Assembly: GCA_947473805.1 (NCBI GenBank)
Contig: CANJGB010000030.1
Coordinates: 1-39,991 of the forward strand
From: Alphaproteobacteria bacterium
GTDB lineage: Bacteria > Pseudomonadota > Alphaproteobacteria > Ferrovibrionales > Ferrovibrionaceae
DNA length: 39,991 bases
Reading direction: 5' to 3'
A program made the translations under genes and the position numbers. Under the pieces are notes generated by a model. The model worked only from the letters and a program-made list of their open reading frames with translations. It did no database searches and was not told where the DNA came from. Of this stretch, positions 38,374 through 39,991 are shown piece by piece. Each line of letters starts with the position of its first letter. The first letter of the stretch is position 1.

Positions 38374-38449
38374 GCCCAGGTAGCTCAGTTGGTAGAGCAG
38401 GGGACTGAAAATCCCCGTGTCGCTGGTTCGATTCCGGCCCTGGGCACCA
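38374..38449 (+). tRNA. tRNA-Phe (GAA anticodon)
   Basis: A 76-base tRNA with encoded CCA. The acceptor stem pairs GCCCAGG with CCTGGGC. The D arm is GCTC-AGTTGGTA-GAGC, the anticodon arm GGGGA-CTGAAAA-TCCCC with GAA, and the T arm CTGG-TTCGATT-CCGG. tRNA-Phe is a common integration site for islands; I did not find a second copy of its 3' end in the window. Confidence 0.97.
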
Positions 38450-38906
38450 TCTAACTTATTGATATTAATAGATATATGGCGCTTTGGGACGGGGCGGTTG
38501 ATTTCTATGGGTGGATGAGTACCTACTGAGTACCCAGCGTCCAGTGTTCCGGATGCCACGCCCAGCGCGCCGACGCGACTTCCACCCCTTGGGCCACTGC
38601 CGCACTGCTCTGCGTCCCCCTTCTCGACGGCTATCGTTCCCAAACGGCTGCGGCGGGCGGGGCGGTCCTCAAACGGAGGCAATGCCCCGGCACACGCCGC
38701 CGCGCCGCCCGGCTCGCAATCATTCTTGCCTTCCCCCGGCCATTTTCAAAAGCGGGGGCTTTATCGATGCCCGAAATACGGTCGGCACCTGGGGCACTGC
38801 CCGACTGCTCAAGTTGAGTACGGCGCGGTGCAGCAGGCAATGCTGATAGACATCTGCGCACACGCAAGGGTTACAATCAGGACCCTCCAACCGAAGGCGC
38901 AGCAAA
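38450..38906 (+). other. Gene-free stretch after tRNA-Phe, probable island margin
   Basis: These 457 bases hold no ORF I can support. They begin with a short AT-rich tract (38455-38480). No integrase, attachment repeat or terminator was recognised. Several short frames are open but lack ribosome-binding sites or protein-like sequence. A weak direct repeat (GAGTACC) occurs near 38517-38535. Confidence 0.5.
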
Positions 38907-39887
38907 GTGTCTAGTGATCTAGCCGACCTAAGGCGCAGGTATCAGCCAGTGACCCTGGCCAAGGAAGTCGATGCGGATACGTCGTATGCGTTGTGGCTGG
39001 GCCTTGATGGGAAAGAGCCTGGCGAACCAATTGAAGATTTGGCGCAGGAACCACTAACCGTAATTCTGGGCGAAGCTCGAAGCGGAAAGACTACAGAGCT
39101 TAAGCTGGCCGCAGAAAGAAACGCTGCCGCAGGACAAAATTGGTTTTTTCTGCGAATCGAAGATTTGGTGGCAGCCGAAAGTCAGGGTGATGCCGCGATT
39201 GCACTTGCGATTGATGCGGCTCGCGAATCAGCCTTCATTGATTGGAAGAACGGGAAAACCGATGCGGTCTTCCTGTTAGACGCGGTTGACGAAGCTAAAA
39301 TCCAAAGGGCGAGCGACTATCGGCGAGCCGTGCGCAAATTTCAGACAGCGCTGGGTAAAGAATTTCATCGAATCCGCATGATCCTGTCATGTCGGGTATC
39401 AGAGTGGCGGCCGCGCGACGATCTTGAACCATTGAAAGCACTGCTGCCCCATCTCGCTCGCCCGACAAAAATCGACCCAAGCAAGGCAGAGCCAACCGTT
39501 GCGTTGGTACAGATCATCCCGCTCGACGAAGAGCGCCTCAAAATTTTGGCGCAACACAGAGGCATCCCGGGCGTCGGAAAATTCATACAGGCAATCAAAG
39601 AAGCCGACGCAACGGACTTCGCAGGTCGTCCCGCCGATGCCATCGAGCTAATGGAGATTTGGCAGCGACAAGGGCGGTTGGGGACACTAACCGAACTAGT
39701 CAGCGAAAATATCGACCGCAAGCTGGTTGAGGACGCTGCCGCGTATTTGGGAAGTCCTACAATATCAGCGGATCGCGCCCGCAAGGGCGCGGAGCGTCTC
39801 GCGGCGGCCGCGATATTGTGCGGCACGTCGAATTTTCGCGTTGTGTGCGTCGTCAGATCATTTGGGACTGATGGGGCTGTAATTTAG
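38907..39887 (+). CDS. NACHT/STAND-type NTPase, C-terminally truncated
   Basis: A 326-residue N-terminal part of a signal-transduction NTPase. Walker A is GEARSGKTTE (55-64), Walker B is AVFLLDAVDEAK (120-131) with the doubled acidic DxVDE of NACHT ATPases, and a sensor-like SCR lies at 161-163 in MILSCRVSEWR. Full STAND proteins run past 800 residues with winged-helix and repeat domains. Here the frame ends in an unconvincing tail (from about residue 310) next to mobile-element-like DNA. The start GTG at 38907 has only a weak AAGG upstream. NACHT NTPases of this kind act in anti-phage defence; that role is inferred. Codon use is visibly AT-richer than in the murA block. Confidence 0.8.
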   Translation: MSSDLADLRRRYQPVTLAKEVDADTSYALWLGLDGKEPGEPIEDLAQEPLTVILGEARSGKTTELKLAAERNAAAGQNWFFLRIEDLVAAESQGDAAIALAIDAARESAFIDWKNGKTDAVFLLDAVDEAKIQRASDYRRAVRKFQTALGKEFHRIRMILSCRVSEWRPRDDLEPLKALLPHLARPTKIDPSKAEPTVALVQIIPLDEERLKILAQHRGIPGVGKFIQAIKEADATDFAGRPADAIELMEIWQRQGRLGTLTELVSENIDRKLVEDAAAYLGSPTISADRARKGAERLAAAAILCGTSNFRVVCVVRSFGTDGAVI

Positions 39888-39918
39888 TGGAGGGTTGGCC
39901 TCATCTGGTTGGTTGATC

Positions 39919-39991
39919 TTATGCGGCGAGTTTGCGGTGAAGCAAGCGACGATGTTCGATGGTTTTCTGTTTGATGCGGTGTCGTTCCTGC
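39919..39991 (-). CDS. C-terminus of an unidentified ORF, probably of a mobile element
   Basis: Only the last 23 codons are in the window, read from the right edge to TAA at 39919. The peptide is basic and helical (RIKQKTIEHRRLLHRKLAA), as at the end of many transposases, and the position next to a broken gene fits an insertion sequence. The family cannot be named and inverted repeats cannot be checked. Confidence 0.4.
   Translation of the reverse strand, partial: QERHRIKQKTIEHRRLLHRKLAA

What the first reader, a model, noticed from the sequence alone, without database searches (positions are those of the whole stretch)
38450..39991. Broken NACHT-type NTPase at a tRNA-Phe island margin
Directly after tRNA-Phe the base composition becomes AT-richer and a GTG-started NTPase with clear Walker A, DAVDE Walker B and SCR sensor appears. 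It lacks any C-terminal sensor domain and ends about 30 bases from the tail of another ORF on the opposite strand. The effector-like N-terminal domain is only about 45 residues. This may be the stub of a defence gene inactivated by an insertion, with more defence genes beyond the window.
Basis: partly seen in the sequence, partly recalled or inferred. Interest (0 to 1): 0.6.

Follow-up and report, generated by a model that had tools for sequence, protein, structure and literature searches.

The report
Antiphage NACHT gene cut by IS
This is the first fifth of a known type of bacterial antiphage gene (a HyoA-like NACHT protein), cut off by a jumping gene that also ends the assembled contig; it is a genuine but ordinary broken defence gene.

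Summary
ORF 38907-39887 is a NACHT NTPase whose first 312 codons match the N-terminus (positions 1-315 of 1430) of NCBIfam NF058534, antiphage protein HyoA, at E=5e-70. Intact relatives have a median length of 1438 aa, and none is naturally about 326 aa. At 39844 the frame runs into an IS3-family element: 39844-39991 is its transposase-end terminus, which recurs, identical, at four other contig ends of the same genome. The last 14 codons and the opposite-strand 'ORF tail' are IS sequence.

The window is a whole contig, so nothing lies to its right in the assembly. No distal part of the gene was found elsewhere in it. In intact relatives the N-terminus is naturally short, and the predicted effector is a C-terminal PD-(D/E)XK nuclease (invariant D, E-x-K, Q and Y; BamHI/FokI-like fold). 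The stub therefore lacks both sensor region and effector and should be inactive. The 'island at tRNA-Phe' part is unproven: no att repeat in the assembly and no integrase seen. Result: a new, broken member of a known kind.

The parts
38374..38449 (+). tRNA-Phe (GAA), the last feature of the resident-like chromosomal segment (infA, maf, RNase E/G-like gene, YacG-like gene, tRNA-Phe)
   Evidence: ARAGORN; its 3' end occurs once in the assembly; upstream gene names from ORF translations and general knowledge
38450..38906 (+). 457-bp spacer of intermediate G+C (0.608) with no integrase or att repeat found
38907..39842 (+). 5' part (312 codons, GTG start) of a HyoA-like NACHT NTPase gene, open and undamaged up to the insertion
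   Evidence: NCBIfam NF058534 positions 1-315/1430, E=4.7e-70; alignment with full-length relatives; AlphaFold2 model pLDDT 85 with NLR/NACHT matches
39069..39092 (+). Walker A GEARSGKT (residues 55-62)
   Evidence: sequence; G60, K61, T62 invariant in 31 homologues
39270..39293 (+). Walker B FLLDAVDE (residues 122-129)
   Evidence: D125, D128, E129 invariant
39387..39395 (+). sensor-1-like SCR (residues 161-163)
   Evidence: R163 invariant
39843..39887 (+). chimeric tail of the ORF: one gene base, then 14 codons and the stop read into the IS
   Evidence: IS tip at 39844; homology to HyoA ends at 39842
39844..39991 (-). Terminus (transposase 3' end) of an IS3-family insertion sequence related to ISPko4, with tip TGTGCGTCGTCAG; runs to the contig end
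   Evidence: identical 148-149 bp at contig ends C37, C32, C44 and C10 (sequences); about 81% identical over about 132 bp to annotated IS3 elements
39919..39991 (-).
   Evidence: compared with the transposases in L016 and L017

Best explanation
A horizontally acquired gene for a HyoA-like antiphage NACHT protein of about 1,430 residues was interrupted at codon 312/313 by an IS3-family insertion sequence that has several copies in this genome. An intact member would probably work like an NLR-type sensor: the large helical middle region senses infection, the N-terminal NACHT domain switches and oligomerises with ATP, and a C-terminal PD-(D/E)XK nuclease cuts nucleic acid. Here only the NACHT domain remains in frame, so the protein should be non-functional. 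Shown: the truncation, the IS terminus, the NACHT fold prediction, and the C-terminal nuclease motif and predicted fold in relatives. Inferred: the sensing and activation steps, the loss of function, and the horizontal origin. Not seen: the other side of the insertion.
For: NF058534 HyoA match to model 1-315 of 1430, E=4.7e-70, ending one or two bases before the IS tip. 65 of 74 relatives whose ORF closes within the held DNA are over 1250 aa, median 1438. The junction sequence from 39844 on recurs identically at four other contig ends with unrelated flanks and resembles annotated IS3 elements; the - strand tail matches an IS3 transposase C-terminus. The fragment model matches NLRC4, NLRP3, NOD2 and Avs4. 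C-termini of 28 relatives have invariant D177, E191-x-K193, Q211 and Y216 and a model whose best structural matches are PD-(D/E)XK nucleases: BamHI, EcoT38I, Can2, FokI, McrC, HamA. Low G+C and GC3. None of the 17 same-family genomes searched has a match.
Against: The right-hand junction was not recovered: only two contigs carry the other IS end and neither holds HyoA sequence, so an IS-linked deletion cannot be told from a gap in the assembly. Phage defence by this subgroup is untested. The close relative L080 scores below the HyoA equivalog cut-off (1057 against 1200 bits), so sensing and effector details may differ. No paper on HyoA was found in the library.
Confidence: 0.9

Rival explanations
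1. The contig end is a misassembly: the intact hyoA-like gene continues in the cell, and the IS terminus was joined to it wrongly because IS copies collapse in the assembly graph.
For: The contig ends inside a repeat present at five contig ends, and the continuation of the gene is nowhere in the assembly, as would be expected if its contig was lost.
Against: The junction is a precise IS tip, homology to HyoA stops exactly there, and the other four copies show the same tip with different flanks, which is what real insertions look like.
Confidence: 0.06
2. The 326-residue ORF is a functional stand-alone short NACHT protein, for example a regulator or a dominant-negative partner of a second system.
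For: The NACHT domain is complete, its motifs are intact and it folds confidently (pLDDT 85). A similar roughly 350-aa stub persists beside an IS21-family element on a Phaeobacter plasmid.
Against: Nearly all relatives are about 1,440 aa. The last 14 residues come from the IS. No second HyoA-family gene exists in the assembly.
Confidence: 0.03
3. The stub marks the edge of a tRNA-Phe-integrated genomic island carrying more defence genes, and the IS event was part of the island's decay. This can be true together with the best explanation.
For: Sharp G+C drop right after a tRNA gene, a common integration site from general knowledge; HyoA relatives sit on plasmids and beside defence-like genes.
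Against: The tRNA 3' end is not repeated in the assembly, no integrase is present between tRNA and contig end, and the 16 relatives' tRNA-Phe flanks read by eye show no evident integrase (no profile search).
Confidence: 0.3

Closest known systems
HyoA (NCBIfam NF058534, NACHT domain-containing antiphage protein)
   Same: The 312 gene codons align to model positions 1-315 in register, E=4.7e-70; all ten compared relatives match the same model.
   Different: Only 22% of the protein is present; the sensor-like middle and the C-terminal nuclease are missing. Close intact relative L080 scores below the equivalog cut-off.
EruA (NCBIfam NF058535, NACHT domain-containing antiphage protein)
   Same: Weaker match over the NACHT region, E=2.2e-12; a sister family of similar length (1318).
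   Different: Much lower score than HyoA for the fragment and for the relatives scanned.
Avs / AVAST (Avs4, PDB 8dgf)
   Same: NACHT/STAND fold of the fragment (Foldseek E=8.5e-5); large single-protein sensor of similar size.
   Different: No PADLOC Avs model matches any family member. The predicted nuclease here is C-terminal, whereas Avs proteins carry their effector at the N-terminus (general knowledge).
Animal NLRs (NLRC4, NLRP3, NOD2)
   Same: Best PDB fold matches of the NACHT fragment, E about 3e-6.
   Different: Sequence identity 13-18%; no CARD, PYD or LRR detected; a helical middle region and a nuclease instead.
IS3 family, ISPko4-like elements
   Same: About 81% DNA identity over about 132 bp of the terminus, and the same transposase C-terminus.
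   Different: Only the two ends of the element are assembled in this genome, so the complete IS was not read.

Membership tests
HyoA (NF058534) | Homology to the N-terminal NACHT region of the model | tested here: met
   Positions 1-315, E=4.7e-70, 236.6 bits
HyoA (NF058534) | Full-length match over the curated equivalog cut-off (1200 bits) | tested here: not met
   236 bits, because 78% of the protein is absent; intact L080 reaches 1057 and L033 984. Hence filed as a fragment of a HyoA-like gene, not as HyoA
HyoA (NF058534) | C-terminal region (PD-(D/E)XK-like in relatives) | tested here: not met
   Absent from the window and not found in the assembly; present in relatives
HyoA (NF058534) | Antiphage activity | not testable with these tools
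   Needs a phage challenge; the NCBIfam name states the annotation only
NACHT/STAND NTPase | Walker A, Walker B with acidic DxxDE, sensor-1 Arg, and NACHT fold | tested here: met
   Invariant residues; AlphaFold2 model and NLR matches; Pfam nSTAND/NACHT hits in the family
Avs (AVAST) | Match to Avs profiles | tested here: inconclusive
   No Avs model among PADLOC hits for 11 members; Avs4 appears among fold matches
IS3-family insertion sequence | Shared terminus and IS3 transposase tail, multiple identical copies with different flanks | tested here: met
IS3-family insertion sequence | Both ends and target-site duplication at this insertion | tested here: inconclusive
   Only one end is in the contig; by inspection the two contigs with the other end (C15, C36) show no matching 3-4 bp duplication
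tRNA-integrated genomic island | Repeat of the tRNA 3' end (att) and an integrase | tested here: inconclusive
   No repeat in the incomplete assembly; no integrase between tRNA and contig end; the far side is not assembled

The most novel reading that the evidence does not exclude
The NACHT-only stub is still expressed and has a role of its own (a regulatory or dominant-negative NACHT protein made by IS insertion), and recurrent IS truncation after the NACHT domain is selected rather than decay.
Probability: 0.03. Interest if true: 0.5.

Novelty: new member of a known kind. Interest (0 to 1): 0.2.

Why it matters
It turns a vague 'broken NTPase' into a named case: a HyoA-like antiphage gene inactivated by a multi-copy IS, with a clear cause for the contig break. 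The comparison also indicates that HyoA-like proteins carry a PD-(D/E)XK nuclease at the C-terminus, the reverse of the Avs layout, and that several members are broken by IS or frameshift, which bears on the cost of keeping such sensors.

Tried and rejected
Looked for the rest of the gene to the right: the contig ends at 39991. Looked for it elsewhere in the assembly with P0001, with the distal 941 aa of the closest relative, and with the HyoA model: nothing beyond the N-terminal piece. Looked for the other side of the IS insertion: two contigs (C15, C36) carry the other IS end, but one continues into an EAL-domain gene and the other into an amidohydrolase-like gene. A single-sequence scan of genome contigs found no relatives; the alignment-based scan found 80 loci. 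PADLOC gave only a weak mad8 hit (E=0.002) over residues 31-76, judged a P-loop chance match. A PDB sequence search with the family profile gave nothing convincing. Papers naming HyoA or EruA as antiphage were not found; the EruA of PMC12839154 is an unrelated E. coli regulator. DefensePredictor (PMC13092281) validates a NACHT system (DS-8), but with a metallophosphatase, so it is not this one. tRNA-Phe flanks in 16 relatives differ from one another and show no evident integrase by eye. Foldseek alone gave only weak matches for the nuclease model; VIA-align and the invariant motif carry that claim.

Full report
What is there. The window is the whole of contig C30 (39,991 bp) of a 3.31 Mb, 58-contig genome. 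The last 1.5 kb hold a tRNA-Phe gene (38374-38449), a 457-bp spacer, and a GTG-started ORF, 38907-39887, of 326 codons. G+C falls stepwise after the tRNA: 0.658, 0.608, 0.554, 0.514.

The gene. Pfam and PADLOC say little (weak nSTAND_NTPase5 and mad8 hits), but NCBIfam identifies it: residues 8-312 match positions 1-315 of the 1,430-position model NF058534, NACHT domain-containing antiphage protein HyoA, at E=4.7e-70. Homologues from a class sample, plasmids and species genomes are long. Of 74 whose ORF closes within the held DNA, 65 exceed 1,250 aa and the median is 1,438 aa. Nearest are L078 (50% identity), L079 (45%) and L080 (37%).

The break. Homology to HyoA stops at 39842. From 39844 the sequence is found, identical over 148-149 bp, at four other contig ends of the same genome, each with a different flank. 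It is about 81% identical over about 132 bp to the termini of annotated IS3-family elements such as ISPko4, and its - strand encodes the end of an IS3 transposase (KQKTIEHRRLLHRKLAA*). So the last 14 codons of the ORF and the 'other ORF on the opposite strand' are both IS, and the IS repeat is why the contig stops. Identity between the five copies suggests recent spread (inference). The other IS end starts contigs C15 and C36, which continue into unrelated genes. Neither P0001, nor the distal 941 aa of L078, nor the HyoA model finds the missing part in the assembly. It may be in an unassembled contig or deleted; the assembly is about 95% complete.

What an intact member looks like. The fragment folds with confidence (pLDDT 85) and its best solved matches are NLRC4, NLRP3, NOD2 and, lower, Avs4: NACHT is correct. 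In full-length relatives nothing longer precedes the NACHT domain as a rule, so the 'short effector' at the N-terminus is normal. The C-terminal 280 residues of 28 relatives hold invariant E143, E167, D177, E191-x-K193, Q211 and Y216. The AlphaFold2 model of the L080 C-terminus (pLDDT 86) aligns best with BamHI (Z 8.8), EcoT38I, Can2, FokI, McrC and HamA, nearly all PD-(D/E)XK nucleases. The Z values are only moderate; the invariant catalytic pattern makes the case. The likely mechanism of an intact member is NLR-like: sensing by the long helical middle region, ATP-driven NACHT assembly, nucleic-acid cleavage by the C-terminal nuclease. Sensing and activation are inferred, and no paper on HyoA was found.

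Consequence here. The stub keeps the switch but lacks both the sensor-like region and the nuclease, so it is most likely dead. Similar accidents occur elsewhere. On a Phaeobacter inhibens plasmid only the first 312 or so residues remain, next to an IS21-family element. In Burkholderia glumae an ISNCY transposase gene separates the nuclease from the rest. Several other loci carry frameshifted copies.

The island. No att repeat of the tRNA 3' end in the assembly, no integrase between the tRNA and the contig end, and no evident integrase beside tRNA-Phe in 16 relatives read by eye. Foreign origin is supported by composition and by absence of matches in the 17 same-family genomes searched. A tRNA-Phe island is possible but unproven.

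Verdict. A real, IS-truncated 5' fragment of a HyoA-like antiphage NACHT gene: a new, broken member of a known kind.

Noticed in passing
G000 C30, C37, C32, C44, C10 (this IS end) and C15, C36 (other end): Five contigs end in one terminus of the IS but only two begin with the other terminus, and by inspection no pair shares a target duplication, so some right-hand flanks are missing from the assembly or rearranged.
   Followed up: partly
L021 (C15:1-755) and L022 (C36:1-1217): The other IS end abuts an EAL-domain gene and an amidohydrolase-like gene, both of which start at the IS, so these may be further genes cut by the same IS.
   Followed up: no
L031:6800-10149 (Phaeobacter inhibens plasmid pP57_a): A second NACHT-only HyoA-like stub: only about 312 residues match, IS21-family istA/istB follow at once, and no distal part is found in the following 4.6 kb.
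   Followed up: partly
L029:6776-12865 (Burkholderia glumae plasmid p3_21g): A HyoA-like gene split by an ISNCY transposase gene between the helical region and the C-terminal nuclease; the N-terminal part recurs on many B. glumae plasmids.
   Followed up: partly
L083, L099, L100, L132, L154: HyoA-like genes broken by frameshifts: homology continues in another frame right after the stop.
   Followed up: no
L079:3314-6832, L028:2613-13198, L026:1-3036: Defence-like neighbours of HyoA-like genes: a 1172-aa restriction-modification-like methyltransferase gene directly upstream (L079), a SIR2-family gene and a helicase (L028), and multiubiquitin/DUF6791/DUF6527 and RES-Xre genes (L026).
   Followed up: no
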